A DNA stretch of 64,000 nucleotides from Hoeflea sp. Lineage in GTDB: Bacteria > Pseudomonadota > Alphaproteobacteria > Rhizobiales > Rhizobiaceae. Shown here in pieces: positions 42,951-62,397 of the stretch (positions within the stretch are counted from its first letter, which is position 1; every line of letters starts with the position of its first letter). Below the pieces are notes generated by a model, which worked only from the letters and a program-made list of their open reading frames with translations, did not search any database and was not told the origin of the DNA. The stretch is taken from the NCBI RefSeq assembly GCF_030682515.1, contig NZ_JAUXOD010000004.1:1-64000 (forward strand). The letters are read 5' to 3'. A program made the translations under genes and the position numbers.

Positions 42951-43262
42951 ATGGTCATTCGCCGACACCCGTTCTTTGACCACTGGATGCGCTCGCTTCG
43001 AGACAGACGCGCCGTCTCGAAGATTATATTGCGGATCGAACGGATCGCCGACGGCAACTTCGGCGACCACAAAAGTGTCGGAGAGGGCGTTCAGGAACTG
43101 CGTATCGACCAGGGTCCCGGCTACCGGGTCTATTATGTTTAGCGTGGTTCCCTGGTCGTGATGCTTCTCTGCGGCGGCGACAAGAGCAGCCAGGCGAGAG
43201 ATATCGAGACCGCCAGACGGCTGGCTAAGGAATTGAAGGATTGGCCCAATGACCTCCATTAA
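42951..43262 (+). pseudogene. higB: HigB/RelE-type toxin broken by an in-frame amber codon
   Basis: The frame starts MVIRRHPFFDHWMRSLRDRRAVSKIILRIERI and runs into QELRIDQGPGYRVYYV, the known 'addiction module killer protein' pattern. A TAG stop follows at 43140-43142. The same frame then continues RGSLVVMLLCGGDKSSQARDIETARRLAKELKDW to TAA at 43260-43262, exactly the rest of the family's C-terminus. One substitution (for example CAG to TAG) explains the break. The truncated product lacks 40 of 103 residues, including the CGGDKS segment, and is probably inactive. The antitoxin start overlaps the original end. Confidence 0.85.
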
Positions 43263-43548
43263 GAACATGCCCCGCTTCGACGCGGCTGACTATCTCGGAA
43301 GTCCCGAAGCGCGCGCCGATTACATGGCCGCAACACTTGAGGAGGGCGATGCCGTTGAAATCCGGCGGGCGCTTTCGACAGTCGCCCGCTCGCTCGGCAT
43401 GACGGCGGTCGCGGAAGAGGCGGGGCTCGGGCGCGAGAGCCTGTACAAGGCGCTGGGCGAGGACGGCAATCCGGAATTCATGACCGTTCTCAAGCTGATG
43501 AAGGCCATGGGCCTCAAGCTCTCGGCGCTGCCGATCGAGGCCGACTAG
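43249..43548 (+). CDS. higA: HigA-type antitoxin (addiction module antidote protein)
   Basis: A 99-residue protein with an Xre-like HTH: RRALSTVARSLGMTAVAEEAGLGRESLYKALGEDGNPEFMTVLKLMKAMGLKL. The opening RFDAADYLGSPEARADYMAATLEEGD is the usual antidote N-terminus. It overlaps the end of the broken toxin gene by 14 bp, the normal toxin-first arrangement. It is intact although the toxin is not, so it may survive as a DNA-binding regulator or against a toxin encoded elsewhere. Confidence 0.9.
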   Translation: MTSIKNMPRFDAADYLGSPEARADYMAATLEEGDAVEIRRALSTVARSLGMTAVAEEAGLGRESLYKALGEDGNPEFMTVLKLMKAMGLKLSALPIEAD

Positions 43549-46703: not shown

Positions 46704-46730
46704 CAGGCCTCAGGCCTCAGGCCTCAGGCC
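46704..46730. repeat. Tandem 7-bp repeat CAGGCCT (3.9 copies)
   Basis: CAGGCCT is repeated at 46704, 46711 and 46718, followed by CAGGCC. The array covers the stop codon and the last base pairs of the GbdR-like gene, so length changes could alter its C-terminus (now QAAA). It is short and possibly polymorphic. Confidence 0.7.
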
Positions 46731-47725
46731 GCGGCCTGGTACTGCTTGCGCTCGGCGCGCTCCTGCTGGGGCGAGCGGTTATAGAGCTCGCGGTAGCATT
46801 TGGAAAAATGCGAGGCCGAGACGAAGCCGCAGGCGACCGCCACCTCGACCACCGGCATGGGTGACTGGATGAGCAGGTGCCGCGCCCGGTCGAGCCGGAT
46901 CTCCAGGTAATAGCGCGCCGGCGAGCGGCCCATTTCCTGGCGGAACAGCCGCTCGATCTGGCGCCGCGAAAGTCCGGCATCGTCGGCGATCTCGATCAGC
47001 GACAGCGGTTCGGACAGGTTGGCTTCCATCAGTTCGATGATCGACAGCACCTTGGCGTTCTGCACGCCCAGGCGCGCGCGCAGCGGCAGGCGCTGGCGGT
47101 CATGGGCGTTGCGGACACGGTCGGTCAGCGCCATCTCGCAGATGCGGTTGACCAGCGTGTCGTCATGATCCTCGCCGATCAGGCTCAGCATCATGTCGAG
47201 TGCCGCGGTGCCGCCCGCGCAGGTGTGGATGTCGCCGTCGATCTCGTAGAGGTCGGCATAGACATGGGCCTTGGGGAAGGCTTCGGAGAAGCCCGGCAGG
47301 TTTTCCCAGTGGATGGCGCAACGCCGGCCCGACAGCAGCCCGGCCTTGGCCAGGATGTGGGCGCCGGTGCACAATCCGCCGATGGCCACGCCGCGATTGT
47401 GCTCCTCGCGCAGCCAGGCCAGCACCGACTTGTTGTCGAAGCGCTCGACATTGACGCCGGAACAGACGAACACCATGGTCGGCCGGTTCTCGCCCGCCAG
47501 GTTGCGGCGTTCGTCGGCGAGCGAGGTGTTGACGGCGACCACGACCTGGTTCGATGCGGGCACCGGGGCGCCGTCATAGGACGCCAGGCGCCATTTGTAG
47601 CACTCGTAGCCCAGCATCCGGTTGGCCAGGCGCAAGGGTTCGATCGCCATGGAAAAGGCGATCATGGAGAATTCCGGTACCATGTAGAAGACGATCGACC
47701 GCATATGCTTCGTAGTTGAGAGCAT
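46724..47725 (-). CDS. GlxA/GbdR-family AraC-type regulator
   Basis: A 333-residue activator. The N-terminal DJ-1/PfpI-like (GATase1) domain contains GLCTGAHILAKAGLLSGRRCAIHWE with the conserved Cys. The C-terminal double HTH of AraC type is EPLSLIEIADDAGLSRRQIERLFRQEMGRSPARYYLEIRLDRARHLL. This layout is that of GbdR, which activates glycine-betaine and dimethylglycine catabolism in pseudomonads, and of related quaternary-amine regulators. The ATG at 47725 is used; a TTG at 47731 is weaker. It lies between the DMGDH-type flavoprotein and the corrinoid cluster and could control both. Confidence 0.88.
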   Translation of the reverse strand: MLSTTKHMRSIVFYMVPEFSMIAFSMAIEPLRLANRMLGYECYKWRLASYDGAPVPASNQVVVAVNTSLADERRNLAGENRPTMVFVCSGVNVERFDNKSVLAWLREEHNRGVAIGGLCTGAHILAKAGLLSGRRCAIHWENLPGFSEAFPKAHVYADLYEIDGDIHTCAGGTAALDMMLSLIGEDHDDTLVNRICEMALTDRVRNAHDRQRLPLRARLGVQNAKVLSIIELMEANLSEPLSLIEIADDAGLSRRQIERLFRQEMGRSPARYYLEIRLDRARHLLIQSPMPVVEVAVACGFVSASHFSKCYRELYNRSPQQERAERKQYQAAA

Positions 47726-51089: not shown

Positions 51090-53129
51090 CTAGTCCCGGT
51101 TGCGGCGTCCGCCGCGCCTGCGGCCGGCGCCGGGTTCGATGCCCGCGGCGGCGTCGGTGTCCATCGAGCGTTCCGGCAGCTTGACCACTTCGGTGAGCTT
51201 GGGGAAGGCGTCGATCTTGTTGGGGAAAGCCATCGCGTTGACGAAATGCTCCTGGAATTTGGGCTCCAGCGCGGTTTCGATCTTCTCGATGCGGGTGACG
51301 GTGTGCTCGATCTCGCGGCGGTGGTCGCGGTTCAGGAGCGCCATGCGTGCGCCGGTGCCCGCGGCATTGCCCACCGCCTTGACACGCTCGAGATCGCAAT
51401 CGGGGACCAGCCCGAGCACGAGGGCGTATTTCGGATCGATGAAGGAGCCGAAAGCGCCGGCCAGCCCGATGCGGTCGACGCTGGTGATGCCCTGCTTGTC
51501 CATCAGAAGCTTGACGCCGGCATAGAGGGCTGCCTTGGCGAGCTGGATGGCGCGGACATCGGTCTGCGTCACCATCAGCTTCTGCTCGCCGTCGCGCAGC
51601 AGATAGGAGAAGGTGCGGCCATTGCCGACAATGCGCGGGCTTTGGGAGGCGAGATCGCCATTGATGACGCCGTCCTCGGTGATAATGCCGGCCAGATACA
51701 TCTCGGCGATGATCTCGATGATGCCCGAGCCGCAGACGCCGGTGACGCCCACGGTCTTGGCCAGCTCCTCGAAACCGGGCTCATCCGACCAGGGCTCGAT
51801 GCCGATGACGCGGTAGCGCGGCTCGAAGGTTTGGGCATCGATGCGGATGCGCTCGATGGCGCCGGGGGCGGCGCGCTGGCCGCAGGAGATCTCGGCGCCC
51901 TCGAAGGCGGGGCCGGTGGGCGAGGAGGCGGCCACGGTGCGGATGGAATTGCCGAGCACGATCTCGGCATTGGTGCCGACATCGACGAGCAGCATCATCT
52001 CGTCCTGGCGGTGCGGGCCTTCGGTCAGCGTTGCCGCCGCCGCGTCGGCGCCGACATGGCCGGCGATGCAGGGCAGCATGTAGACGCGCGCGCCGGGATT
52101 GAGCGGAAGACCGATCTCGGAGGACTTGACATTGACCGCGCCGGAGACGGCGAGCGCGAAGGGGGCGCCGCCAAGTTCGGTCGGGTCGATGCCCAGGAAC
52201 AGGTGGTGCATGATCGGGTTGCCGACGAAGACGGCGTCGAGAATGTCGGTGCGGCTGATCTCGCCCTCGGCGCAGACCTTGTCGATCAGCCCGTTGAGCG
52301 CCTCGCGCACGGCCGTGGTCATGCCCTCGCGGCCCTCGGGGTTCATCATCACATAGGAGACGCGGCTCATCAGATCCTCGCCGAAGCGGATCTGCGGGTT
52401 GGATGTGCCCGACGAGGCGAGCGTGCGTCCCGACAGCAGCGAGCTGAGATGCATGGCGATGGTGGTCGAGCCGATGTCGCAGGCGATGCCATAGGCTTCG
52501 TTCTTGAGGCCCGGATAGAGCGCCACCAGTGCGACCGGTCCGCCGTCGACGGGTTCGTGCACCGCGGCGGTCACCGTCCAGTTGCCCTTGCGCAGGATCT
52601 GCTGCACCTGGCCCAGAAGATAGGTGTCGATGGAAAGGTTCTTGAAGCCCCAGTCGGCCTCGATCGCCATGAGCAGCCGGTCGAGATCGCCCAGCGGCTT
52701 GTGCATGTCGGGCTCCTCGACCTCGATATAGCACATGTGGATCGCCGGATTGCGCGCGATGACGCGGCCGTCGGAATCCTTGCGCACCACCTGTGCGTTG
52801 ACCACGGCATCCTGCGGGATGTCGATCACCAGGTCGCCCAGGATCTTCGCCGAGCAGGAGAGCCTGCGGCCGGGCTTCAGGTCCCGCTTCTCGGCGTAGC
52901 GGACCTCGTTGCCGCCAAAGGCCGAGATGTGGTCGTTGGACGAGGTGATGCCGTGCTTGGCGAAGACGCCTTCCTGCACATCGACCTGGCAGCGCCCGCA
53001 AATGCCGCGGCCTCCGCACACGCTTTCCACATGAACGCCCAGCTGCCGGGCGGCGTCGAGCACGGGGGTATCTGTGGGAAAGCGCCCGCGCTTTCCCGAC
53101 GGCATGAACAGGACGAGGTGGTCGGTCAT
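51090..53129 (-). CDS. RACo/RamA-like corrinoid-activating ferredoxin-ASKHA protein
   Basis: A 679-residue protein. The N-terminal [2Fe-2S] ferredoxin has ligands C38, C44, C47 and C92 (VCGGRGICGRC and RLSCSAK). A linker precedes the ASKHA-type ATPase region with GIACDIGSTTIAMHL, MMLLVDVGTNAEIVLGN and VCGSGIIEIIAEM. RACo/RamA proteins use ATP and low-potential electrons to reduce inactive Co(II) corrinoid to Co(I). The start is the ATG at 53129, 7 bp after the MtrH-like gene. The C-terminus has a basic tail GRRRGGRRNRD. It is the last gene of the operon. Confidence 0.9.
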   Translation of the reverse strand: MTDHLVLFMPSGKRGRFPTDTPVLDAARQLGVHVESVCGGRGICGRCQVDVQEGVFAKHGITSSNDHISAFGGNEVRYAEKRDLKPGRRLSCSAKILGDLVIDIPQDAVVNAQVVRKDSDGRVIARNPAIHMCYIEVEEPDMHKPLGDLDRLLMAIEADWGFKNLSIDTYLLGQVQQILRKGNWTVTAAVHEPVDGGPVALVALYPGLKNEAYGIACDIGSTTIAMHLSSLLSGRTLASSGTSNPQIRFGEDLMSRVSYVMMNPEGREGMTTAVREALNGLIDKVCAEGEISRTDILDAVFVGNPIMHHLFLGIDPTELGGAPFALAVSGAVNVKSSEIGLPLNPGARVYMLPCIAGHVGADAAAATLTEGPHRQDEMMLLVDVGTNAEIVLGNSIRTVAASSPTGPAFEGAEISCGQRAAPGAIERIRIDAQTFEPRYRVIGIEPWSDEPGFEELAKTVGVTGVCGSGIIEIIAEMYLAGIITEDGVINGDLASQSPRIVGNGRTFSYLLRDGEQKLMVTQTDVRAIQLAKAALYAGVKLLMDKQGITSVDRIGLAGAFGSFIDPKYALVLGLVPDCDLERVKAVGNAAGTGARMALLNRDHRREIEHTVTRIEKIETALEPKFQEHFVNAMAFPNKIDAFPKLTEVVKLPERSMDTDAAAGIEPGAGRRRGGRRNRD

Positions 53130-53136
53130 GGGTGGG

Positions 53137-54096
53137 TCACGCAGCTCCCGAGCGGCCGGCGCGGCCGCCGCGGCGGCGGCTGTCGCCGCCCGAGGGCGCC
53201 TGGGACTGGGGGGCGGGTGCGGAGCCCGCCACATGCGGCTGGTAGTCCTTGTAGGTCTTGATCCAGTTGGTGCAGTTGGGATCGGTGCCATTGAGCACAT
53301 TGGCGGCGCGCACGGCCTCCATTTCCTGCGGACGGCAGGGGTTCATGATCGCCGAGGTCATGCCGGCGCCGATCACCATCGGGATGAAGCCGGCATTGAT
53401 GCCGTGGCGGTGGGGCAGGCCGAAGGAGACGTTGGACAGGCCGCAGGTGGTGTTGACCTTGAGCTCGTTGCGCAGCCGGTAGAGCAGCGCGAAGACCTGG
53501 CGGCCGGCGTCACCCAGTGCGCCGATCGGCATGACCAGCGGGTCGACGACGATGTCGCAGGGCTTGATGCCGTAATCCATGGCGCGCTCGACGATCTTCT
53601 TGGCCACGGCGAAGCGCACGTCGGGATCCATGGAAATGCCGGTCTCGTCGTTGGAGATCGCCACCACCGGCACGTCGTATTTCTTGCACAAGGGCAGGAT
53701 CGCCTCCAGCTTTTCTTCCTCGCCGGTCACGGAGTTGACCAGCGGGCGGCCCTTGGCGACCTTCAGCGCGGCCTCGATCGCGGCTGTCACCGAGCTGTCG
53801 ATCGACAGCGGGATGTCGACCAGGCCCTGGACGATCTCCATGGTCTGGACCAGCAGGCCCGGCTCGGTCTCGTTCGGGTTGACCGAGGTCACGCCGGCGT
53901 TGACGTCGAGCATGGTGGCGCCGGCTGCGACCTGTTCGAGCGCGTCCTTGATCACGGTCTCGAAATTGCCGGCGATCATCTCGGCGGCCAGCTTCTTGCG
54001 CCCGGTCGGGTTGATGCGTTCGCCGATCACGCAGAAGGGCTGGTCAAAGCCGATGATGACTTCGCGGGTGGCGGAGGCGACGATAGTGCGGGTCAT
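53137..54096 (-). CDS. Methyltetrahydrofolate:corrinoid methyltransferase (MtrH/pterin-binding family)
   Basis: A 319-residue TIM-barrel pterin-binding protein. FCVIGERINPTGRKKLAAEMIAGN, GATMLDVNAGVTSVNPNETEPGLL, DIPLSIDSSVTAAIEAAL and NSVTGEEEKLEAILPL follow the MetH/AcsE folate domain. It would move methyl groups between a methyl-corrinoid protein and tetrahydrofolate. The acidic pterin-binding Asp and Asn residues (DVNAG, DSS, NSVTG) are present. A Gly/Arg-rich C-terminal tail (SGGDSRRRGGRAGRSGAA) is unusual. The ATG at 54096 is chosen over a longer 54120 start. Confidence 0.92.
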   Translation of the reverse strand: MTRTIVASATREVIIGFDQPFCVIGERINPTGRKKLAAEMIAGNFETVIKDALEQVAAGATMLDVNAGVTSVNPNETEPGLLVQTMEIVQGLVDIPLSIDSSVTAAIEAALKVAKGRPLVNSVTGEEEKLEAILPLCKKYDVPVVAISNDETGISMDPDVRFAVAKKIVERAMDYGIKPCDIVVDPLVMPIGALGDAGRQVFALLYRLRNELKVNTTCGLSNVSFGLPHRHGINAGFIPMVIGAGMTSAIMNPCRPQEMEAVRAANVLNGTDPNCTNWIKTYKDYQPHVAGSAPAPQSQAPSGGDSRRRGGRAGRSGAA

Positions 54097-54177
54097 GTTC
54101 GATCCTTGCAGTGAAGACATAAAGACTTGTTTATATCGTTATAGAATTTCGGCCCGCGATGCAAGCCTCCGGGCCTG

Positions 54178-55275
54178 TCAGGGCGTCTCGGCGTCGCCGA
54201 CCGCGCCGGCCATCTCGTGGGGCATCTGCCGCGGATTCTCGAGGATTTCCTCCATGCGGGCGGCCACCATACCGTCCACAGGATTGGGCTCCTTGCGCCA
54301 GGGCCGGCGGCCCTTGAGCACGCCCGATTCGTGGACAATCTCGGCCACGAATTCCTCCTGGCGGTAGGCCATGACGTGAATGCCGGAAACGCCCGCGATC
54401 TCCTTGACCTCGTTGATGATGTCGATGCAGAGCTGCTTGCCTTCCTTCTTCTGGTCCTGCGCGCCTTCGAGCCGCGCGATGATCGCGTCGGGAATGTGCA
54501 CGCCGGGCACGTTGGAGCGCATCCATTTGGCTGTCCGCGCCGAGGCCAGCGGGCCCACGCCGCAGAGGATGAAGCACTCCTTGTCGAGCCCCATGTCGCG
54601 CACCTTCTGCATGTAGGTCCTGAACATCGGCACGTCGTAGCAGTACTGGCTCTGGACGAACTGCGCGCCGGCGGCGATCTTCTTGGCCAGACGATGCGGC
54701 CGGAAATCATAGGGCGGGGCGAAGGGGTTGATGGCGGCGCCGAGGAAGACGGTGGGCGGGCTGGTGAGCTTGCGCCCCGACAGGAACTTCGAATTGTCGC
54801 GCATGATCCTTATGGTTTCCAGCAGCGACATGCAGTCGAGATCGAACACCGGCTTGGCGCCGGGCTGGTCGCCCGCCTGGACGCCGTCGCCGGTCAGGCA
54901 CAGGATGTTCTGCACGCCCATCGCCGCGGCGCCGAGCACGTCGCCCTGGATGGCGATGCGGTTCTTGTCGCGGCAGGAGATCTGCATGATCGGCGCATAG
55001 CCCATGCGGGTCAGCAGCGCGCAGATGCCGACCGACGACATGTGGGCATTGGCGCCCGAGGCGTCGACGGCGTTGATGCCGTCGACCCAGCCGTCGAAGA
55101 TCGCCGCGCGTTCATAGACATCATGCGGATCGGCGCTGTCGGGTGGGTTGAGCTCGGCGGTGACTGCGAATTCGCCGCGGCGCAGGATGCGCTCGAGCCG
55201 TCCCCGCGAGGAATGGCCGGGCAGGGGGTCGAGTGAGGCGCCGGGATCAAGCGGATTGGTGTCGGCCTGGCTCAT
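54178..55275 (-). CDS. MetF-like methylenetetrahydrofolate reductase
   Basis: A 365-residue flavoprotein-type MTHFR barrel. It starts GRLERILRRGEFAVTAELNPPDSADPHDVYERAAIF, has NILCLTGDGVQAGDQPGAKPVFDLD (folate/FAD-binding), and YDFRPHRLAKKIAAGAQFVQSQYCYDVPMF, matching MetF. In this cluster it would oxidise methyl-THF to methylene-THF or run the reverse. The stop of the following Cys-rich partner gene (55272) overlaps its start by 4 bp. Much of its upstream open frame is antisense shadow. Confidence 0.9.
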   Translation of the reverse strand: MSQADTNPLDPGASLDPLPGHSSRGRLERILRRGEFAVTAELNPPDSADPHDVYERAAIFDGWVDGINAVDASGANAHMSSVGICALLTRMGYAPIMQISCRDKNRIAIQGDVLGAAAMGVQNILCLTGDGVQAGDQPGAKPVFDLDCMSLLETIRIMRDNSKFLSGRKLTSPPTVFLGAAINPFAPPYDFRPHRLAKKIAAGAQFVQSQYCYDVPMFRTYMQKVRDMGLDKECFILCGVGPLASARTAKWMRSNVPGVHIPDAIIARLEGAQDQKKEGKQLCIDIINEVKEIAGVSGIHVMAYRQEEFVAEIVHESGVLKGRRPWRKEPNPVDGMVAARMEEILENPRQMPHEMAGAVGDAETP

Positions 55276-55862
55276 TGCTGGGCTCCGGGATTGGCGGCGG
55301 CTTCGCGGCTGGCGGCGGCGCTGGCGGTGACCCTGAGCCACGAGGAGGTTTCGCGCAGCGACTGGTCCACCGGCTTCTGCACATTGAGGATCATGTCGCG
55401 GCCGTTCATCTGCTGAGCGCCGGACCAGGCCTGAACCCAGACGCAGGGCATGTCGGGCTCGACCTCGCAATTGCCGTTGGCGCGCACGCCGCCGCAGGGG
55501 CCGTTGCGCAATTGTTTCGGGCAGTTCATCGGGCAGGACATGCCGGTGGAGGACAGCACGCACTGGCCGCACATGCGGCAGTCGAAGAGGAAGCCCTTGA
55601 CGTGCTTCTCGACGAACTTGACCGGTCCCTCGGCGCGCTGGTAGCCGATGGCCTTCCACATCGGATGCAGCTTGAGGAAGATATCGGCGAAGTGGGCGTA
55701 GAACCACTCGAGCGCGCGGGAATGGCGCACCGACCACAGCCGGATGGCAAAGCTGCGGGCATTGCGGCCGGTGGCCGAGACGCCCGACGGCTTGTAGGCT
55801 GTCGTCGTCGCGGCCTTCTTGTTGAGGCTCGCCTGAGTCGGCTTGGTCGGTTCGTCAGCCAT
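55272..55862 (-). CDS. MTHFR C-terminal domain (MTHFR_C) Cys-rich partner protein
   Basis: A 196-residue protein with no MetF barrel. It has a Cys-rich core, FDCRMCGQCVLSSTGMSCPMNCPKQLRNGPCGGVRANGNCEVEPDMPCVW, able to bind one or two Fe-S clusters or zinc. This is the pfam12225-type MTHFR_C module, found with MetF-like proteins in corrinoid pathways of acetogens, where it provides an electron link. Its start is the ATG at 55862; it overlaps both neighbours, so stoichiometric expression with MetF is likely. Confidence 0.88.
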   Translation of the reverse strand: MADEPTKPTQASLNKKAATTTAYKPSGVSATGRNARSFAIRLWSVRHSRALEWFYAHFADIFLKLHPMWKAIGYQRAEGPVKFVEKHVKGFLFDCRMCGQCVLSSTGMSCPMNCPKQLRNGPCGGVRANGNCEVEPDMPCVWVQAWSGAQQMNGRDMILNVQKPVDQSLRETSSWLRVTASAAASREAAANPGAQQ

Positions 55863-56160
55863 GGGTGTCCCTGCCTCCGCCCTTGACCAGCGCCACCAGG
55901 CGGTCCTTGTCATAGGCTGCTTCAAGCGCGGCCGCTGCCTTGTCGGCCTCGGCTTCCAGATCGTCGGAGACTTCAACCGGGTCGGCGCGGCGCCATTCGG
56001 CGAGGTAGTCATCGGTCTCGGCGGCGCCGGTGCGCATGGCGCACATGTCGATGGCTTCGGTGAACCTCAGCGACAGCTCCCGCTTGGCGGTCGCGCGTCC
56101 CTTCTTGATGATCACCTGGGCGGGAATGTCGCGCCAGTAGACGATGATGCAGTTGGCCAT
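55855..56160 (-). CDS. 'Virulence factor' family small protein
   Basis: A 101-residue protein, MANCIIVYWRDIPAQVIIKKGRATAKRELSLRFTEAIDMCAMRTGAAETDDYLAEWRR, matching the pfam 'Virulence_fact' family, a name without known mechanism. It is the first gene of the methyl-transfer operon and overlaps the Cys-rich protein by 8 bp. It is compact and basic in the first half. Its constant place in such clusters suggests a role in the pathway, for example protein stability or electron transfer, not in virulence. Confidence 0.85.
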   Translation of the reverse strand: MANCIIVYWRDIPAQVIIKKGRATAKRELSLRFTEAIDMCAMRTGAAETDDYLAEWRRADPVEVSDDLEAEADKAAAALEAAYDKDRLVALVKGGGRDTHG

Positions 56161-56314
56161 GGGGGTCTCCTTGGGGGCTACAATGCGCATGGGGATTTTT
56201 GGCCGCTTCGCTCACGACGACGCGCGGCGCGTCAAAAACGACCTGCAGTGCCGCGCATCCATTTGGATGCGCGAAGGACGCTGTAGTTCTTGAAACAATG
56301 CCTGTTCGTTATCG

Positions 56315-56323
56315 CTCAAATGA
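56315..56323 (+). promoter_or_regulatory. CTCAAATGA motif upstream of the virulence-factor/metF/mtrH operon
   Basis: The nonamer CTCAAATGA, within ATCGCTCAAATGA (56311-56323), lies 155 bp upstream of the operon start. The same nonamer recurs at 58896 and, on the other strand, at 59955. It is a candidate shared regulatory element in an otherwise GC-rich sequence. Confidence 0.35.
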
Positions 56324-56405
56324 ACCCATGGGAGCGCGACAGGCATCAGACGACAACGGAGGTAATCGGGATGGCAGGCGGGGTCAATTCCGGAGCCGAC
56401 CCCGG

Positions 56406-57176
56406 CTACCAGATGCCTTTGCCAAGGCCGGTTGCAAGATAGGTCCAGATCGGCGGATGGAAGCGCTGCACCGAGGGCAGTTGGCTCTGGACGGTCTCGA
56501 CCTTGCCGTCCAGCACGTTCTGCACGGCCTGGATGACCATCGCGCGGGAGCCTGCGGCCATGGCGAGCGAATCGGTCAGGAGCGTTTCGCGCGGATGCGG
56601 CTCGAGGAAGGCCTGGCTGAGCGTGGCGCCGGTATCGACGCCTGAGTCGACGAGGTGCACGGTGGTGCCGTAATTCGCGCCGTCGCCGGTGGCGCGCGCC
56701 CACCAGCCGCCTGCCAGGCCGCGATACTTGGGATTGATCCCGGAATGGTAGTTGAGCACCGGGCAGGGGATGGCAGCCAGCGTCGCCCTGGACAGCATCC
56801 GGCAGCCGGCGAGGAACACCAGGTCCGGCTTGCGCGCGGCGATCAGAGCCAGGCAATCGGCGCCATTGGCGGAGGAGACGGGCGTGATCGCCAGCGAAGG
56901 CAGCGGTTCGGTTCGAAGATCATGGGTTGCGATGATCTCGTTTGTCCGCGCCACGGCAAACCGCTTGCCGAACCGGGAGACCATCATGGTGAAGAACTGC
57001 CCGATGGTCTGCACCCAGCCCACCTTGCGGGCGCGGCGCCTGAGAAACAGGCTCTTGGGCTCGGCCTGCTCGAGTGCCACCTCGACGCCGGCAAAGCGTA
57101 AGGCCAGCGCATTGACGATGACCCAGGCATAGGCGCCGCCCGCGGTGATGATGAGGAGTGTCGGTTTCTTGGTCAT
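56406..57176 (-). CDS. Formyltransferase-family protein
   Basis: A 256-residue formyl_trans_N protein. The formyl-THF site motifs are CPVLNYHSGINPKYRGLAGGWWA (Asn and His of the active site) and TTVHLVDSGVDTGATL (catalytic Asp). The first 100 residues include a basic stretch (LFLRRRARKVGWVQTIGQFF). It is related to methionyl-tRNA or phosphoribosylglycinamide formyltransferases, but length and divergence point to a sugar- or amine-formyltransferase. A link to the folate pathway is possible; it may equally be an envelope-sugar enzyme. The ATG at 57176 is used. Confidence 0.75.
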   Translation of the reverse strand: MTKKPTLLIITAGGAYAWVIVNALALRFAGVEVALEQAEPKSLFLRRRARKVGWVQTIGQFFTMMVSRFGKRFAVARTNEIIATHDLRTEPLPSLAITPVSSANGADCLALIAARKPDLVFLAGCRMLSRATLAAIPCPVLNYHSGINPKYRGLAGGWWARATGDGANYGTTVHLVDSGVDTGATLSQAFLEPHPRETLLTDSLAMAAGSRAMVIQAVQNVLDGKVETVQSQLPSVQRFHPPIWTYLATGLGKGIW

Positions 57177-57318
57177 GCGGTTTCCGCCCAGATCAAGGCC
57201 TGAGGCTACCACGGCGAGGTTAAGAACCAGCTACGGCGCGGACCGGGCAGGGTTTGCGCGGGGGGGAAGGCCGCGGCCGCGCGCGGACAGCGCCGGTTCG
57301 CTCTTGTGCGTGACAGGA

Positions 57319-57963
57319 TCAGAACAGGAGCATCAGCACCGCGCCGGTGAATCCCACGACAAGGGCCGCCACCGTGATCGAGACGATGCCGGTGAACACG
57401 CCGAGCGCCAGGCAATTGCCGTCGCGCTCGGTGTGGGCGACGCCCAGCACGGCCACCGCGAAGGCTGGCAGCCAGTTGCCGAAGGGGATTGGCAGCACGC
57501 AGGTGATGCCCAGCAGCAGCGAGAAGATCCCGAACAGACGTTCACGGATCGGGCCGTTGAGCGGCCAGTTGCGGGGCCGCACCCAGGTCTCCGCGTTGCG
57601 CAGCCAGGGCGAGACACGCGTGACCATTCGCAGGAAGGTGGCCCGATCGACGGAGTAGTTGGCAAGCACGCGCGGCAGCCAGACCTTGTTGTAGCCGATC
57701 ACCATCTGCCAGGCGACGAACACCATCGGCAAACCCAGCACCATGGTGGCGCCCGGCGGCAGCGGAATGAGATTTGGAATGGCAAAGACAAGCAGGAAGG
57801 CGCCGAACGACCGGTCGTCAAGCGCGGTGGCGATCTGGCCCATGCTGACGCGGTCCCCCGCATCGCGCGCCAGGCGCTCGAGCAGCTCCGAGAGTTTTTC
57901 AGGGTGTTTGGGGTCGCTGTGGGCGATGGAAGGTAGGGGAGACAAGGCGGACTGCGGATTCAC
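57319..57963 (-). CDS. exoD: ExoD-family exopolysaccharide-related membrane protein
   Basis: A 214-residue membrane protein. SMGQIATALDDRSFGAFLLVFAIPNLIPLPPGATMVLGLPMVFVAWQ and the hydrophobic C-terminal half follow ExoD, first described in Sinorhizobium meliloti as needed for exopolysaccharide production and alkali tolerance. The only start before the conserved domain is the GTG at 57963. It is monocistronic; the gap to 58074 contains a TAAGCA-N5-TGCTTA palindrome (57997-58013). Confidence 0.88.
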   Translation of the reverse strand: MNPQSALSPLPSIAHSDPKHPEKLSELLERLARDAGDRVSMGQIATALDDRSFGAFLLVFAIPNLIPLPPGATMVLGLPMVFVAWQMVIGYNKVWLPRVLANYSVDRATFLRMVTRVSPWLRNAETWVRPRNWPLNGPIRERLFGIFSLLLGITCVLPIPFGNWLPAFAVAVLGVAHTERDGNCLALGVFTGIVSITVAALVVGFTGAVLMLLF

Positions 57964-57996
57964 TGGGGATACCCTGAATTTCGATCTCCTGATATG

Positions 57997-58013
57997 TAAG
58001 CATGGTTTGCTTA
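57997..58013. promoter_or_regulatory. Palindrome in the exoD upstream region
   Basis: TAAGCA and TGCTTA flank TGGTT, giving a perfect 6-bp inverted repeat 34 nt upstream of the exoD GTG and within its probable promoter. It may be an operator; no regulator is assigned. Confidence 0.3.
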
Positions 58014-58074
58014 AGAATTATGGCTGTCCGAAAATATATTTGGAGCGTGCCCGGGAAGCGCGTGCATGGCAGGC

Positions 58075-58692
58075 TCACAGCCGCGCCAGGGCATCCGTCA
58101 GATCGCCATACCCGGTCATTCTGCGCTCAAAGCGAAGCCCCAGACGCTCGGCCGCGGCGCGGGCCTTGTCCTCCAGCCCGGGATCGTCGGTCTGGGCCAG
58201 ATACAGCGCCCGCTCGTAATGGCCGAAATAGGTGTCGCGCAGTTCGGGAAAGCGGTCGAGACCCAACGGCCGGATCAGGAAGGCGTCGAAATGCCGGGCG
58301 AGGAAGTCGGTGATGAAGAATGTCGTCATCATCTCGTCGCCGGAGGCCTCGAAGGCGGCATTGCCCATGTAGAAGGAAAAGCAGTGCGGGCCGGCGATCC
58401 GCTCGACGCCGTGGGCGGCGCACACCTTGTCCAGGTCGCCACCGGTGCCGCAATCGGCATAGCCGATGAAGATGTGCTCATATCCCTCCTGGCGGGCGGC
58501 CTGGATGGCCCGCTCCACGGCCGGAGCGATGCGTTCGGGATGATGATGATAATTGGCGTCGATGCATTTGAGGTCGATGTGATCCCGGCCGAGCTGCGCG
58601 TTCACCGCCAGCACCTCGCGCGCGATCATGCCGCAGGCGATCACGCGAACCTTATGCGCGACTCGATCTGACTGCGTTTGCGGCTTGAACAT
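58075..58692 (-). CDS. DUF1638 domain protein
   Basis: A 205-residue protein with VIACGMIAREVLAVNAQLG near the start, a NYHHHPERIAPAVERAI core, and IFIGYADCGTGGDLDKVCAAHGVERIAGPHCFSFYMGNAAF. The conserved Cys and His residues (ACGM, NYHHHPE, ADCGTGG, GPHCFSF) suggest a metal or corrinoid site. DUF1638 proteins occur beside MttB-family methyltransferases. The function is unknown; a cobalamin- or methyl-handling role is an inference. The ATG at 58692 is chosen; a GTG at 58722 is possible. Confidence 0.85.
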   Translation of the reverse strand: MFKPQTQSDRVAHKVRVIACGMIAREVLAVNAQLGRDHIDLKCIDANYHHHPERIAPAVERAIQAARQEGYEHIFIGYADCGTGGDLDKVCAAHGVERIAGPHCFSFYMGNAAFEASGDEMMTTFFITDFLARHFDAFLIRPLGLDRFPELRDTYFGHYERALYLAQTDDPGLEDKARAAAERLGLRFERRMTGYGDLTDALARL

Positions 58693-58756
58693 CAAATCGC
58701 CTTGTATGCGGTGAACGGTCACTCGGCGTGAATTTCAACGCCAAGGATGAAGCCCG

Positions 58757-58885
58757 ATGAATATTACCAAAATCACTACAGTCATGTTGGTTACACTGAT
58801 GCTTGCATCTTGCGCAAACACCGTTCGCGGTGTCGGTCGCGATGTCAACCAGACGGTGGATGCGGTCGAAGATTCGATCAACTGA
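58757..58885 (+). CDS. Entericidin-like small lipoprotein
   Basis: A 42-residue peptide, MNITKITTVMLVTLMLASCANTVRG and on to VEDSIN. The lipobox LASC and the CANTVRGVGRDVNQTVD sequence match entericidin A/B-type lipoproteins. These small membrane lipoproteins are linked to stationary-phase or stress-induced envelope effects. It is transcribed opposite to the flanking methyl-transfer genes. Confidence 0.85.
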   Translation: MNITKITTVMLVTLMLASCANTVRGVGRDVNQTVDAVEDSIN

Positions 58886-58892
58886 GACTTTA

Positions 58893-58918
58893 TCACTCAA
58901 ATGAGGCCATTTGAGTGA
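58893..58918. repeat. Perfect hairpin between entericidin and corrinoid-protein genes
   Basis: TCACTCAAATG and CATTTGAGTGA are 11-bp perfect arms around AGGC. It lies in the convergent gap between the entericidin stop (58885) and the corrinoid gene end (59027), so a bidirectional terminator is plausible even without a good T-tract. Its arm contains the CTCAAATGA nonamer found upstream of the two methyl-transfer operons. Confidence 0.6.
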
Positions 58919-59026
58919 CACTACGCCTGACGACAGACTTGTCCCACCATGAGCTTTGCGCCTCCGCGCCATGGCGGCAGGCTCCACACAGGCGCCTTAC
59001 GCGGCGCCTGTGCAGCTCCCTTGACG

Positions 59027-59728
59027 TCAGACCCCGGCAGCGAGCCGGTTGTGGCGGCGCTTGATCAGTTCCTTGGCGGTCTCGACCGCGACGGCGGCAT
59101 CCCGGCAATAGGCGTCGGCGCCCACGGCCTTGCCGAATTCCTCGTTCAGCGGCGCACCGCCGACCAGCACGATGAAGTCGTCGCGGATGCCCTTTTCCTT
59201 CATCGTGTCGATGACGACCTTCATGTAGGGCATGGTCGTGGTCAGAAGCGCCGACATGCCGAGAATGTCGGGTTGTTCGCGCTCGATGGCCTCGATGTAT
59301 TTTTCCACCGGGTTGTTGATGCCGAGATCGATGACATCAAAGCCCGCGCCTTCCATCATCATGCCGACCAGGTTCTTGCCGATGTCGTGGATGTCGCCCT
59401 TGACGGTGCCGATCACCATCTTGCCGAGCTTGGGCGCGCCGGTCTCGATCAGAAGCGGGCGCAGGATGAACATGCCGGCCTTCATGGCATTGGCGCTCAT
59501 CAGCACTTCCGGCACGAAGAGAATGCCGTCGCGGAAGTCCTCGCCCACGATGCGCATGCCTTCGACGAGCGCCTCTGTCAGCAGGTCGTAGGGCGTCCAG
59601 CCGCGGCTCAGGAGAATGTTGGTGGCTTCCTCGATCTCTTCCTTGAGCCCGTCATACAGATCGTCATGCATCTGCTGGACAAGTTCGTCGTCGGAGAGTT
59701 CGGAAAGGATGATTTCATCGTCAGACAT
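59027..59728 (-). CDS. Corrinoid protein (MtgC/MttC-like)
   Basis: A 233-residue B12-binding carrier. A helical cap domain (LSRGWTPYDLLTEALVEGMRIVGEDFRDGILFVPEVLMSANAMKAG) is followed by a Rossmann-like domain with GTVKGDIHDIGKNL, where His114 in D-x-H-x-x-G ligates cobalt, and GFDVIDLGINNPVEKYIEAI, PDILGMSALLTTTMPYM and VGGAPL. It carries the methyl group from the MttB-like enzyme to the MtrH-like enzyme. It is divergent from the MttB-like gene across 252 bp. Confidence 0.95.
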   Translation of the reverse strand: MSDDEIILSELSDDELVQQMHDDLYDGLKEEIEEATNILLSRGWTPYDLLTEALVEGMRIVGEDFRDGILFVPEVLMSANAMKAGMFILRPLLIETGAPKLGKMVIGTVKGDIHDIGKNLVGMMMEGAGFDVIDLGINNPVEKYIEAIEREQPDILGMSALLTTTMPYMKVVIDTMKEKGIRDDFIVLVGGAPLNEEFGKAVGADAYCRDAAVAVETAKELIKRRHNRLAAGV

Positions 59729-59860
59729 CGGTCACTCCCTTGAATTTACTTGTCCGGCGGTTCGGCGCACCAGATCGATCCTGCATAGCGATATAGGCGA
59801 TCGTTTGCAAAACGTTCCTTGAATGCGACGCGCACCACGGAAAAAGCGACGGCGTCTCAT

Positions 59861-59905
59861 TAATGCATTATTCCTTGAGCGCCAAGGCTTGGCGCTCAGA
59901 GGAAT
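59861..59905. promoter_or_regulatory. Large palindrome in the corrinoid/MttB divergent promoter region
   Basis: ATTCCTTGAGCGCCAAG (59870-59886), a central G, then CTTGGCGCTCA and, after one bulged G, AGGAAT (to 59905) form an almost perfect 17-bp inverted repeat. The palindrome TAATGCATTA (59861-59870) adjoins it. It lies in the gap between two divergent genes, so it is more likely an operator or structural element than a terminator. The bound regulator is unknown; the GbdR-like or LysR proteins in the window are candidates. Confidence 0.6.
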
Positions 59906-59954
59906 GTGCGCGGAGCGGTTTTGGCTAGCATGGCCCGATCGGCGCGATTGGGCG

Positions 59955-59963
59955 TCATTTGAG
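59955..59963 (-). promoter_or_regulatory. CTCAAATGA motif upstream of the MttB-like gene (reverse orientation)
   Basis: TCATTTGAG, the complement of CTCAAATGA, lies 18 nt before the MttB-like start. The motif occurs also at 56315 and in the hairpin at 58896. This recurrence within the cluster is why it is reported; function is unproven. Confidence 0.35.
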
Positions 59964-59980
59964 AATATGCAGGCACAGTA

Positions 59981-61570
59981 ATGGCTCATCCAGACACTTT
60001 CCCCACCCCAGACCTGGCTCAAGAGGCTTCGCCCGAGGCTGCCGGCGGGCGGCGCGGCAAGGGCGCCGCGGGCCGACGCGCGCTCAGAAGCGGCGGCGGG
60101 CCTGGCGAGTCCATGCCTTACATCCTGCGCAAGCTCGGCAATTACGAGGTGCTGGACGAGGAAGGCCTGAGCCTGATCGAGCGCAATGCCGACACGGTGC
60201 TTCAGGAAATCGGCATCGAGTTCCGCGATGACGCCGAGGCGCTTCAGCTGTGGCGCGAAGCGGGCGCCGATGTGAAGGGCGAGAGGGTCCGGTTTCCCAA
60301 GGGGCTTTGCCGCGAGCTCTTGAAGACCGCGCCAGAGGTGTTCACCCAGCATGCGCGCAATCCGGCGCGCTCGGTGCAGATCGGCGGCAAGGCCACCGTG
60401 TTCGCACCGGTCTACGGGCCCCCCTTCGTGCGCGATCTCGATGGCGAGCGGCGCTATGCGACGATCGAGGATTTCCGCAATTTCGTCAAACTGGCCTATA
60501 TGGCGCCGGCCATGCACCATTCCGGCGGCACCGTGTGCGAGCCGGTCGACGTGCCCGTCAACAAGCGGCATTTCGACATGGTCTACAGCCACATGAAATA
60601 CTCCGACAAGCCGTTCATGGGCTCGGTGACCGCGCCTGAGCGGGCCCAGGACACGATCGAGATGTGCAAGATCCTGTTCGGCGCCGAGTTCGTCGACCAG
60701 AATTGCGTCACGCTCAACCTGATCAACGCCAATTCGCCGATGGTGTTCGACGAGACCATGCTCGGTGCGTTGAAAGTCTATGCCCGCAACAACCAGGCCT
60801 GCGTCGTCTCGCCGTTCATCCTGGCGGGCGCCATGAGCCCGGTGACGGTGGCGGGCACGCTCACGCAAATTCTGGCCGAAGTGCTGGCCGGCGCCGCCTT
60901 CACGCAGCTGATCCGTCCGGGCGCGCCGGTGCTGTTCGGCACATTCGCCGCCTCGATCTCGATGCAGTCGGGCGCGCCGACCTTCGGCACGCCGGAGCCG
61001 TCGCTGGTCTCCTATGGCGCGGCGCAACTGGCGCGGCGGCTCAAGATCCCGTTCCGCACCGGCGGCTCGCTCTGCGGCTCCAAGGTTCCCGACGCGCAGG
61101 CGGCGCACGAGAGTGCGGCGACGCTCAACATGACGCTGCTGGCCGGCACGAACTTCGCGCTGCATTCGGCCGGATGGCTCGAGGGCGGGCTGGTCAGCTC
61201 CTACGAGAAGTTCATGATCGACATCGACCAGCTCGGCATGCAGCAGCGCTTCGCCGAGGGGATCGACCTGTCGGAAACCGGCCAGGCGCTCGACGCCATC
61301 GCCGAAGTGGGACCCGGCAGCCACTATCTCGGCTGCGCCCATACCCAGGCCAATTTCCAGTCGGCCTTCTACCGCTCGACGCTGGCCGACAACAATTCCT
61401 ACGAGCAGTGGCTCGCCGAAGGCGAAAAGCGCATCGAGGAGCGGGCGCGGGTCCTTTGCCGGTCCTGGCTCGACTCCTATGTCGGCCCGGATCTCGACCC
61501 GGCAATCGACGCGGCGCTGCTCGAGTATATCGCAAGGCGCAAGGGCGAGATGCCCGACGCCTTCACTTGA
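59981..61570 (+). CDS. Pyrrolysine-free MttB-family (trimethylamine/glycine betaine) methyltransferase
   Basis: A 529-residue COG5598 methyltransferase. It has an N-terminal Gly/Arg-rich extension (residues 1-43), then LDEEGLSLIERNADTVLQEIGIEFRDDAEAL and the barrel with HARNPARSVQIGG, TVFAPVYGPPFVRDLDGERRYATIEDFRNF and LAGTNFALHSAGWLEGGLVSSYEKFMID. No in-frame TAG occurs, so it is not the pyrrolysine-dependent TMA enzyme. Characterised members without pyrrolysine demethylate glycine betaine, proline betaine or carnitine-type substrates. The ATG at 59981 is the first in the frame. It gives its methyl group to the divergent corrinoid protein. Confidence 0.9.
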   Translation: MAHPDTFPTPDLAQEASPEAAGGRRGKGAAGRRALRSGGGPGESMPYILRKLGNYEVLDEEGLSLIERNADTVLQEIGIEFRDDAEALQLWREAGADVKGERVRFPKGLCRELLKTAPEVFTQHARNPARSVQIGGKATVFAPVYGPPFVRDLDGERRYATIEDFRNFVKLAYMAPAMHHSGGTVCEPVDVPVNKRHFDMVYSHMKYSDKPFMGSVTAPERAQDTIEMCKILFGAEFVDQNCVTLNLINANSPMVFDETMLGALKVYARNNQACVVSPFILAGAMSPVTVAGTLTQILAEVLAGAAFTQLIRPGAPVLFGTFAASISMQSGAPTFGTPEPSLVSYGAAQLARRLKIPFRTGGSLCGSKVPDAQAAHESAATLNMTLLAGTNFALHSAGWLEGGLVSSYEKFMIDIDQLGMQQRFAEGIDLSETGQALDAIAEVGPGSHYLGCAHTQANFQSAFYRSTLADNNSYEQWLAEGEKRIEERARVLCRSWLDSYVGPDLDPAIDAALLEYIARRKGEMPDAFT

Positions 61571-61683
61571 ACACAGCCCGATAGAGCCAGGGAGACAGGC
61601 GGTCAGGAGAAAGTAGCAGGCCTCATCCACAAGGAGGTCTGGAGATCCGCGTTCCGCGACGGCGGATCGGGCGGCTGAGGCCT

Positions 61684-62397
61684 GTGGCCGGCGCCAGCGG
61701 GATCGACACGCTCGGGGCGGGACTTGCCCCCCACGGGCTCAGCTTGCGCGGATGGGTGTTTCCCGATGCGGACTCGGCACCCCGGCTCGCTGCGGGCGGG
61801 TCCGCATCGGCCGTCGGGCTGATCGGCCATGAAGGCGGCGGCTTCTGGCCCGTCTTTCAGGTCTGGCATGAGCGGCATCCCGGCGTCGACCATCCGCTCG
61901 ACACGTGGTCGAAAGCGGTGATCACGCCGCTCGCGATCGCGGCGGGCGGCGAGGCGGTGTTTCCGTCCGACCGGCCGTGGCATCCGTTCCAGCAATGGGC
62001 CATGGCGGCCCAGGGCCTGCGGCCCTCGCCCTTGGGGATGCTGATCCATCCGGTCTGCGGGCTATGGCACGGATATCGTGGCGCGATCCTGCTCGATGAC
62101 GCGGCGCTGGCGCGGCTCGGGGTTTCGGATCAGGCGGGCCCTGGTGCCGCGCCGCCGCCCGCTCCCGCGCACCCCTGCGACACCTGCACCGACAAGCCCT
62201 GTCTTTCCGCCTGTCCGGTGGGCGCCTTCGCCGCCGATGGCTTCGACGCCGCCGCCTGCCGCGCCCATCTCAGGACCGATGTCGGCCGGCAAGGCTGCAT
62301 GAGCACGGGGTGCCTGGCGCGCGACGCCTGTCCCGTCGGGCGCGACTCTCGCTACAGCGACGCGCAGATCCGCTTCCACATGGCGGCTTATTCATAA
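61684..62397 (+). CDS. QueG-like 4Fe-4S ferredoxin protein
   Basis: A 237-residue protein. The N-terminal half resembles the N-terminal domain of epoxyqueuosine-reductase-like proteins (LAPHGLSLRGWVFPDAD, KAVITPLAIAAGGEAVFPSDRPWHPFQQW). The C-terminal half has a 4Fe-4S site CDTCTDKPCLSACPVGAF and further Cys residues in GRQGCMSTGCLARDACPVG. No corrinoid-binding site is seen, so it is probably an electron-transfer protein. It follows the MttB-like gene by 113 bp and may supply electrons to the pathway. No ATG fits; the GTG at 61684 is a provisional start. Confidence 0.7.
   Translation: MAGASGIDTLGAGLAPHGLSLRGWVFPDADSAPRLAAGGSASAVGLIGHEGGGFWPVFQVWHERHPGVDHPLDTWSKAVITPLAIAAGGEAVFPSDRPWHPFQQWAMAAQGLRPSPLGMLIHPVCGLWHGYRGAILLDDAALARLGVSDQAGPGAAPPPAPAHPCDTCTDKPCLSACPVGAFAADGFDAAACRAHLRTDVGRQGCMSTGCLARDACPVGRDSRYSDAQIRFHMAAYS

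What the first reader, a model, noticed from the sequence alone, without database searches (positions are those of the whole stretch)
51090..62397. Corrinoid/folate methyl-transfer system in an apparently aerobic alphaproteobacterium
The genes make a full demethylation route: pyrrolysine-free MttB methyltransferase, corrinoid carrier (DIHDIG), MtrH-like folate methyltransferase, MetF-like reductase plus MTHFR_C partner, RACo-like reactivator, with a 4Fe-4S protein nearby. In acetogens and methanogens this logic moves methyl groups from quaternary amines into one-carbon metabolism. Here it sits among oxygen-using genes (Rieske oxygenase, leucine catabolism), and the substrate is not fixed by known enzymes. 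The low-potential corrinoid must be kept reduced in the presence of oxygen.
Basis: partly seen in the sequence, partly recalled or inferred. Interest (0 to 1): 0.78.

Follow-up and report, generated by a model that had tools for sequence, protein, structure and literature searches.

The report
Split B12 betaine-demethylase and methionine synthase
This gene cluster of a Hoeflea-like bacterium most likely takes methyl groups off glycine betaine and also makes methionine with the same vitamin B12 protein; that kind of system was described in 2025, but one of its constant members, a small protein labelled 'virulence factor', seems to have gone unnoticed.

Summary
In detail: MttB-type methyltransferase, corrinoid carrier, pterin methyltransferase, MetF-like reductase with MTHFR_C partner, RACo-like reactivase and a dicluster 4Fe-4S protein lie at 51090-62397. 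It is the MtgBCD(E) system known from Ruegeria (PMC12478193, 2025) and Phaeobacter (PMC5764234, 2018): one corrinoid protein shared by glycine-betaine demethylation and a split methionine synthase. No MetH was found in the genome. MttB has a near relative of known structure (4yyc) and matches glycine betaine MtgB; the substrate is still inferred. New here: the PF13769 protein ('Virulence_fact', 55855-56157) tracks DUF1638 in 314 genomes of the class (both 61, one alone 3 and 3) and lies near DUF1638 or MtgD in 57 of those 61. DUF1638 keeps Cys20, His49, Cys81 and Cys104 in 13 of 13 sequences aligned from across the phylum sample. The system is a new member of a known kind; these two proteins deserve a test.

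The parts
51090..53129 (-). RACo/RamA-like ATP-dependent corrinoid reactivase (2Fe-2S + ASKHA domains)
   Evidence: Pfam RACo_C_ter 2.7e-89, Raco_middle, RACo_linker, Fer2; phmmer to 3zyy 8.4e-94 over residues 1-643 of 679; start
53137..54120 (-). MtgD: methyl-H4F:corrinoid methyltransferase (Pterin_bind)
   Evidence: PRK07535 389 bits, cut-off 259; in 70 of 73 rhizobial loci
54178..55275 (-). MetF2: methylene-H4F reductase homologue, predicted to run in the oxidising direction
   Evidence: PF02219 7.2e-35; a second MetF (303 bits) is elsewhere in the genome
55272..55862 (-). MTHFR_C / MetV-like Cys-rich partner of MetF2 (8 Cys)
   Evidence: PF12225 4.1e-27; overlaps MetF2 by 4 bases and the PF13769 gene by 8 (coordinates); 8 Cys
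55855..56157 (-). PF13769 'Virulence_fact' small protein (100 aa): unrecognised constant member of the system (start could be 56190)
   Evidence: Pfam 2.8e-26; co-occurrence and linkage
56406..57176 (-). formyltransferase-fold protein, role here unknown; probably inserted between the two halves of the operon
   Evidence: PF00551 1.2e-14; in 46 of 73 loci
57319..57963 (-). ExoD-like membrane protein, probably unrelated
   Evidence: label recalled, no profile search was run on it; in 26 of 73 loci
58075..58692 (-). DUF1638 protein, predicted accessory of corrinoid reactivation, with invariant Cys20, His49, Cys81, Cys104
   Evidence: PF07796 1.9e-27; conservation; mutant phenotype in Phaeobacter, PMC5764234
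59027..59728 (-). MtgC: corrinoid carrier protein (DIHDIG motif)
   Evidence: B12-binding and B12-binding_2; best NCBIfam model an MtgC, 219 bits, below its cut-off of 370; only strong PF02607 match in the genome
60047..61570 (+). MtgB: pyrrolysine-free MttB-family methyltransferase, predicted glycine betaine:corrinoid methyltransferase (start may be 59981 or 60113)
   Evidence: PF06253 769 bits; 4yyc 1.2e-291, glycine betaine methyltransferase 9yce 7.7e-123
61684..62397 (+). dicluster 4Fe-4S protein without a known family, candidate electron carrier
   Evidence: 8 conserved Cys; 68 of 73 rhizobial loci; class-wide association but rarely adjacent; no Pfam match, only a weak NapG match in NCBIfam, no PDB match
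46724..47704 (-). GbdR-like GlxA/AraC regulator (choline/betaine regulator family)
   Evidence: NF052371 361 bits, below its cut-off of 480; in the 10 kb flank of 11 of 73 loci
40152..42716 (+). dimethylglycine oxidase/dehydrogenase-like FAD + GcvT protein, candidate next step after MtgB
   Evidence: PF01266, PF16350, PF01571; dimethylglycine oxidase 1pj5 1.2e-105; a similar gene in the flank of only 2 of 73 loci, at 24% identity

Best explanation
The cluster is an MtgBCDE system. Glycine betaine enters (predicted through the ABC transporter just past the window); MtgB moves one methyl group to Co(I) on MtgC, leaving dimethylglycine; MtgD moves it on to tetrahydrofolate; MetF2 with its Cys-rich MetV-like partner oxidises methyl-H4F to methylene-H4F for the C1 pool; dimethylglycine is oxidised by a flavoenzyme. 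In the other direction methyl-H4F from the canonical MetF goes through MtgD and MtgC to MtgE and homocysteine, giving methionine; with no MetH found this should be the main methionine synthase. RACo restores Co(I) with ATP when the corrinoid is oxidised to Co(II), helped by DUF1638. The PF13769 protein is a further constant member of unknown action. Shown here: gene content, order, family membership, conservation, no MetH found. Carried over from work on Ruegeria and Phaeobacter: the dual role. Inferred: substrate, direction of MetF2, roles of PF13769 and of the 4Fe-4S protein.
For: Family matches for the steps; MtgE above its curated cut-off, 561 v 338 bits, on the same contig at 66018-67028; betaine/choline-type ABC transporter, cobQ, cobU/P and cobW next to it; MtgB-type match; dimethylglycine oxidase-like gene; GbdR-like regulator. 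PF02574 only in two stand-alone frames, PF02607 strongly only in MtgC, PF02965 not found in the genome. The six core genes together in 66 of 73 named rhizobial loci, with MtgE too in 56 of 73. Two MetF genes, as reported for Ruegeria. Literature genetics: mtgC and mtgD mutants of Ruegeria lose methionine synthesis and growth on betaine; Phaeobacter mutants in the RamA-like and DUF1638 genes are rescued by methionine.
Against: No experiment in this organism. MtgC and MttB score below the curated cut-offs of the characterised NCBIfam models (219 v 370; 273 v 525), so the names rest on context. Three more MttB-family genes in the genome could take glycine betaine instead. The GbdR-like regulator, transporter permease and binding protein are below their cut-offs; transporter genes are in the flank of only 18 to 33 of 73 loci and cobQ of 9 (flanks may cut them off). 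A core-MetE-like frame exists (PF01717, 94.5 bits) and could be a second methionine synthase. Bmt/MtgE of Phaeobacter can methylate homocysteine directly from betaine or DMSP in vitro (PMC12366255, abstract and passages seen).
Confidence: 0.85

Rival explanations
1. The core (MtgC, MtgD, MtgE, RACo, DUF1638) is the methionine synthase only, and this MttB homologue feeds it from another methylated compound (proline betaine, carnitine, gamma-butyrobetaine, a DMSP-like compound), not glycine betaine.
For: Four MttB-family genes in one genome with one clear MtgC; MttB-family members with different substrates share one carrier in Eubacterium according to PMC12478193 (Discussion). The GbdR-like and dimethylglycine-oxidase-like genes are 12 and 17 kb from MtgB and seen in the flanks of only 11 and 2 of 73 loci, though 10 kb flanks would not reach those distances.
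Against: This paralogue is the one divergent from mtgC, with MtgC near it in 72 of 73 loci; betaine/choline-type transporter beside MtgE; of the four it scores highest against glycine betaine methyltransferase 9yce (414 bits v 395, 338 and 193), by a narrow margin over the second.
Confidence: 0.2
2. Glycine betaine is demethylated directly by the BHMT-like MtgE/Bmt with homocysteine, and the corrinoid genes serve only methyl-H4F-dependent methionine synthesis.
For: NF005718 names MtgE betaine-homocysteine S-methyltransferase; Phaeobacter Bmt makes methionine from betaine and DMSP without folate or cobalamin in assays (PMC12366255, abstract and passages).
Against: Would leave MtgB, MetF2 and the MetV-like protein without a role; mtgC mutants of Ruegeria cannot use betaine even with methionine.
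Confidence: 0.1
3. A decaying anaerobic methylotrophy island acquired by transfer, without present function.
For: The logic is typical of anaerobes (family knowledge).
Against: Intact frames, gene overlaps, 59-91% median identity of the core genes over 73 loci, and no MetH found.
Confidence: 0.02

Closest known systems
MtgBCDE of Ruegeria pomeroyi DSS-3 (PMC12478193; abstract, Results, Discussion and Bioinformatics sections read)
   Same: MtgB (pfam06253), MtgC, MtgD, MtgE, a MetF2 besides MetF, RamA-like and DUF1638 proteins
   Different: Here nearly all genes sit in one cluster (as the paper reports for Sinorhizobium meliloti); a MetV-like partner of MetF2 and the PF13769 protein are present; the paper's main text has no hit for 'virulence' (MetV was not searched); substrate untested
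Split methionine synthase of Phaeobacter inhibens (PMC5764234; section 11 and passages seen)
   Same: three separate pieces plus RamA-like (DUF4445) and DUF1638 proteins
   Different: described for methionine; in the parts seen no MttB link is made
Glycine betaine:corrinoid methyltransferase MtgB (PDB 9yce; near-identical chain 2qne; organism Desulfitobacterium recalled)
   Same: match at 7.7e-123 over residues 30-502 of 507, Leu at the pyrrolysine column
   Different: from an anaerobe (recalled); its MtgC is a separate lineage from the alphaproteobacterial one according to PMC12478193
RACo (PDB 3zyy; organism Carboxydothermus recalled)
   Same: 2Fe-2S, linker, middle and ASKHA domains, match over residues 1-643 of 679
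   Different: serves the CODH/ACS corrinoid protein in an anaerobe (recalled)

Membership tests
MtgBCDE dual system | MtgB-type MttB homologue, MtgC and MtgD together | tested here: met
   MtgC below the cut-off of the MtgC models
MtgBCDE dual system | MtgE (stand-alone homocysteine S-methyltransferase) in the genome | tested here: met
   NF005718 561 bits, cut-off 338; contig position 66018-67028
MtgBCDE dual system | no canonical MetH (typical, not universal) | tested here: met
   PF02965 not found, PF02607 strong only in MtgC, PF02574 only stand-alone; genome 98.86% complete
MtgBCDE dual system | RamA-like reactivase and DUF1638 | tested here: met
MtgBCDE dual system | mutants lose betaine use and methionine synthesis | not testable with these tools
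   needs genetics
Glycine betaine methyltransferase (MtgB) | MttB family without pyrrolysine | tested here: met
   open frame without TAG; Leu aligned to the X of 7xcl
Glycine betaine methyltransferase (MtgB) | methylates Co(I)-MtgC with glycine betaine | not testable with these tools
   needs enzyme assay
TMA methyltransferase TIGR02369 (pyl MttB) | score above curated cut-off and in-frame amber | tested here: not met
   273 bits v 525; no TAG
RACo/RamA corrinoid activators | 2Fe-2S plus ASKHA ATPase domains | tested here: met
   below the cut-offs of the AcsV (380 v 800) and RamA (109 v 500) models
GbcAB Rieske glycine betaine monooxygenase | GbcB over its curated cut-off in the genome | tested here: not met
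   best 144 bits v 500; GbcA itself was not searched genome-wide
PF13769 Virulence_fact | profile match over cut-off | tested here: met
   92 bits v 25
PF13769 Virulence_fact | any role in virulence, as the name suggests | not tested
   nothing in the gene context points to it

The most novel reading that the evidence does not exclude
The 100-residue PF13769 protein, known only by the family name 'virulence factor', is an unrecognised required part of the alphaproteobacterial split corrinoid methyltransferase (a docking, folding or redox partner between MtgC/DUF1638 and MetF2/MtgD), and DUF1638 is a metal- or cluster-binding protein (Cys20, His49, Cys81, Cys104) that works between RACo and MtgC, which is how the system keeps Co(I) in oxygen. 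If so, an mtg system could not be rebuilt in a new host without them.
Probability: 0.55. Interest if true: 0.6.

Novelty: new member of a known kind. Interest (0 to 1): 0.42.

Why it matters
As a system it adds a compact, Hoeflea-like example, in a genome where no MetH was found, to the 2025 finding that one B12 carrier serves both betaine demethylation and methionine synthesis. It also turns two proteins of unknown function, each present in about a fifth of a class-wide genome sample (64 of 314), into candidates for the open question of how a low-potential corrinoid is kept active in aerobes, and it corrects a misleading 'virulence factor' label.

Tried and rejected
Rieske link: the window's Rieske protein is VanA_C type, 44 kb away, so it was dropped. 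Formyltransferase and ExoD-like genes: in 46 and 26 of 73 loci; treated as insertions. DUF1638 as a universal partner of PF13769: not so. In the phylum sample 12 of 53 DUF1638 genomes lack PF13769, 11 of them outside the class (three of the 11, G336, G341 and G374, are weak matches in long frames); the control genomes show DUF1638 in Methanosarcina without PF13769 and PF13769 in Bacillus subtilis without DUF1638. 4Fe-4S protein as a fixed member: associated (52 of 64 DUF1638 genomes against 18 of 250 others, counting the 70 genomes with rows at E<=1e-20 of 76 with any match), but within 10 kb of DUF1638 in only 5 of 52, the window's own genome included. DUF1638 against the MetH activation domain: 32 of 64 with DUF1638 have it, 153 of 250 without (p 0.12), so no exclusion of MetH across the class.

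Papers: PF13769 in no paper of the held library; DUF1638 in three, of which two were used and the third (PMC12542648, passages) only lists SMc04333 as a DUF1638 protein; guessed locus tags gave no paper. The listings showed nothing on PF13769 in titles and abstracts; none of those papers was opened for it. Subscription journals and preprints are not held, so 'not in print' means these searches only. A tree of MttB proteins with characterised outgroups was not built; the only substrate clue from sequence is the score ranking.

Rows dropped: 7 of 80 loci with short flanks; 3 of 15 stretches (L154-L156) in which my DUF1638 profile found nothing.
Full report
What is there. The window is positions 1-64000 of contig C34 (77,891 bases) of a 4.67 Mb, 98.9% complete genome. 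The closest named record in the one scan made is a Hoeflea MAG (97% identity over MtgB), so I call it Hoeflea-like. On the minus strand, in order of transcription: MtgC 59027-59728, DUF1638 58075-58692, ExoD-like and formyltransferase-like genes, PF13769 protein 55855-56157, MetV-like 55272-55862, MetF2 54178-55275, MtgD 53137-54120, RACo 51090-53129. The last five overlap or stand within 60 bases of each other. Divergent on the plus strand: MtgB 60047-61570 and a dicluster 4Fe-4S protein 61684-62397.

Past the window end, on the same contig, are MtgE (66018-67028, NF005718 561 bits against 338), genes for a betaine/choline-family ABC transporter (ATPase over the proV subfamily cut-off, 344 v 327 bits; permease and binding protein below theirs), cobQ, cobU/P and cobW. 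Upstream in the window are a dimethylglycine oxidase-like gene (1pj5 at 1.2e-105) and a GbdR-like regulator (361 bits, cut-off 480). No MetH was found in the genome: PF02574 occurs twice, both in frames of under 400 residues; PF02607 strongly only in MtgC, plus a weak match in a 340-residue frame; PF02965 has no match. PF01717 gives a 349-residue core-MetE-like frame at 94.5 bits and a marginal second match. There is another MetF at 303 bits besides MetF2. GbcB is not found above its cut-off.

What it is. This is the architecture of the MtgBCDE system. In Ruegeria pomeroyi, MtgC and MtgD are needed for both methionine synthesis and glycine betaine use, and MetF2, RamA and DUF1638 proteins rise on N-osmolytes (PMC12478193). 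In Phaeobacter the three-part methionine synthase needs a RamA-like and a DUF1638 protein (PMC5764234). The 2025 paper reports that in Sinorhizobium meliloti the same genes and the cobalamin operon are together; the locus here looks like that arrangement. So the finding's surprise, a corrinoid demethylation route in an aerobe, is already explained.

Substrate. The window MtgB has a near relative of known structure, 4yyc (phmmer 970 bits), then glycine betaine methyltransferase 2qne/9yce (414 bits), then pyrrolysine MttB (128 bits). The three paralogues are 54.8, 43.0 and 26.6% identical to it, lie in other contexts and score 395, 338 and 193 bits against 9yce. Glycine betaine is the best guess for the window protein; the second paralogue scores nearly as high, so this is not settled. 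That 4yyc is from Sinorhizobium meliloti with an unknown ligand is recalled, not from a call.

Conservation. In these 73: DUF1638 73, MtgC 72, PF13769 71, MtgD 70, 4Fe-4S protein 68, RACo 67, MtgE 62, MetV 53, MetF2 52, formyltransferase 46, transporter genes 33, 27 and 18, ExoD 26, GbdR 11, cobQ 9, dimethylglycine-oxidase-like 2. These are close relatives, so synteny by descent is expected, and the outer genes can fall beyond the 10 kb flank; the contrast between 71 for PF13769 and 46 and 26 for the two genes beside it is the useful part. The mtg gene next downstream of PF13769 on its strand is MetV in 53 and MtgD in 18 of the 71 (only six mtg genes were considered).

PF13769. In 314 genomes drawn across the class (325 asked for; completeness at least 90%), DUF1638 is in 64, PF13769 in 64, both in 61, neither in 247; Fisher p 2e-57, without correction for kinship. 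The 61 belong to 33 families. In eight families (f16, f26, f36, f57, f68, f93, f99, f114) at least one sampled genome has both and at least one has neither (12 negative genomes, picked by hand from the labels that one search shows; one f68 genome has DUF1638 alone). The six discordant genomes are G107, G236, G244 (DUF1638 only) and G006, G093, G147 (PF13769 only). G093 and G147 have PF13769 near MtgD and RACo; G006 is a weak match at a contig end with only a weak MtgD-like match. PF13769 is within 1 kb of DUF1638 in 43 and within 5 kb in 47 of 61. Stretches for the 14 others were fetched: in 10, PF13769 is within 2 kb of MtgD, measured between midpoints. In one of these (L100) it overlaps a MetF-like gene followed by MtgD. 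Of the four without MtgD nearby, L103 has a MetF-like and cobalamin-synthesis-like genes next to it (names from reading, not a profile), L099 is a 4.8 kb contig with no mtg gene recognised, L105 showed nothing that I recognised as related and L107 was not read further. That makes 57 of 61 linked to DUF1638 or MtgD. In 338 genomes across the phylum (340 asked for; some shared with the class sample), PF13769 is in 41, every one with DUF1638, while 12 of 53 DUF1638 genomes lack it. One genome outside the class (L150) has MtgC, DUF1638, PF13769, MetV, MetF2, MtgD and RACo in a row, which suggests the ancestral order that the window shows with an insertion. Bacillus subtilis among the controls has PF13769 without DUF1638, so the domain also has another life; that the family name comes from a staphylococcal protein is recalled. 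No paper in the held library mentions PF13769.

DUF1638. Cys20, Cys43, Cys81, Cys104 and His49, His103 are invariant in 24 sequences (the window and 23 of the 40 stretches fetched, those with a match) and in 45 rhizobial ones. In 13 sequences (the window and 12 from the phylum sample), Cys20, His49, Cys81 and Cys104 stay 13 of 13; Cys43 and His103 are 5 of 13. The eight distant ones sit beside distant RACo and MtgC homologues (L142-L149). A metal or Fe-S site is my inference. The model is an alpha/beta, Rossmann-like arrangement without a decisive match.

How oxygen is handled. RACo here has the full 2Fe-2S, linker, middle and ASKHA set. As in other corrinoid methyltransferases, Co(I) is lost to Co(II) now and then and must be rescued; MetH does so with SAM and flavodoxin (general knowledge), and here the ATP-driven RACo is predicted to replace that. 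So an aerobic host is not a paradox. The electron donor is unknown; the dicluster 4Fe-4S protein is a candidate, weakened by its distance from the cluster in most of the class sample.

Verdict. Observation confirmed; interpretation partly supported; the system is known (2018 to 2025); PF13769 and the DUF1638 residue set are the parts worth a bench test.

Noticed in passing
L014:7202-11373 (C17, about 223-227 kb of the contig): An MttB paralogue (54.8% identical to the window MtgB) next to an Old-Yellow-Enzyme-type flavin oxidoreductase with a pyridine-nucleotide domain: a candidate two-step demethylation pair for another quaternary amine such as proline betaine.
   Followed up: partly
L012:4275-14145 (C88): A distant MttB paralogue (26.6%) between a betaine-aldehyde-dehydrogenase-like gene, two dimethylglycine-oxidase-like FAD/GcvT proteins and a second stand-alone homocysteine S-methyltransferase: looks like another methylated-compound operon.
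   Followed up: partly
L013:9458-11056 (C17): Third MttB paralogue (43%) beside a multi-PAS hybrid histidine kinase; no strong corrinoid protein on that contig in the own-genome search.
   Followed up: no
L142-L149: Outside the class, DUF1638 sits with distant RACo and MtgC homologues in genomes without a PF13769 match: a separate corrinoid system of unknown substrate.
   Followed up: partly
61684-62397: Dicluster 4Fe-4S protein with 8 conserved Cys and no Pfam or PDB match; in 52 of 64 DUF1638 genomes and 18 of 250 others of the class sample, mostly unlinked.
   Followed up: partly
56406-57176: Formyltransferase-fold protein inside the cluster, in 46 of 73 rhizobial loci; weak similarity to PurN, Fmt and PurU, role unknown.
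   Followed up: no
43249-43548: HI1420-type addiction-module antidote gene (PF21716); no partner gene was looked for.
   Followed up: no
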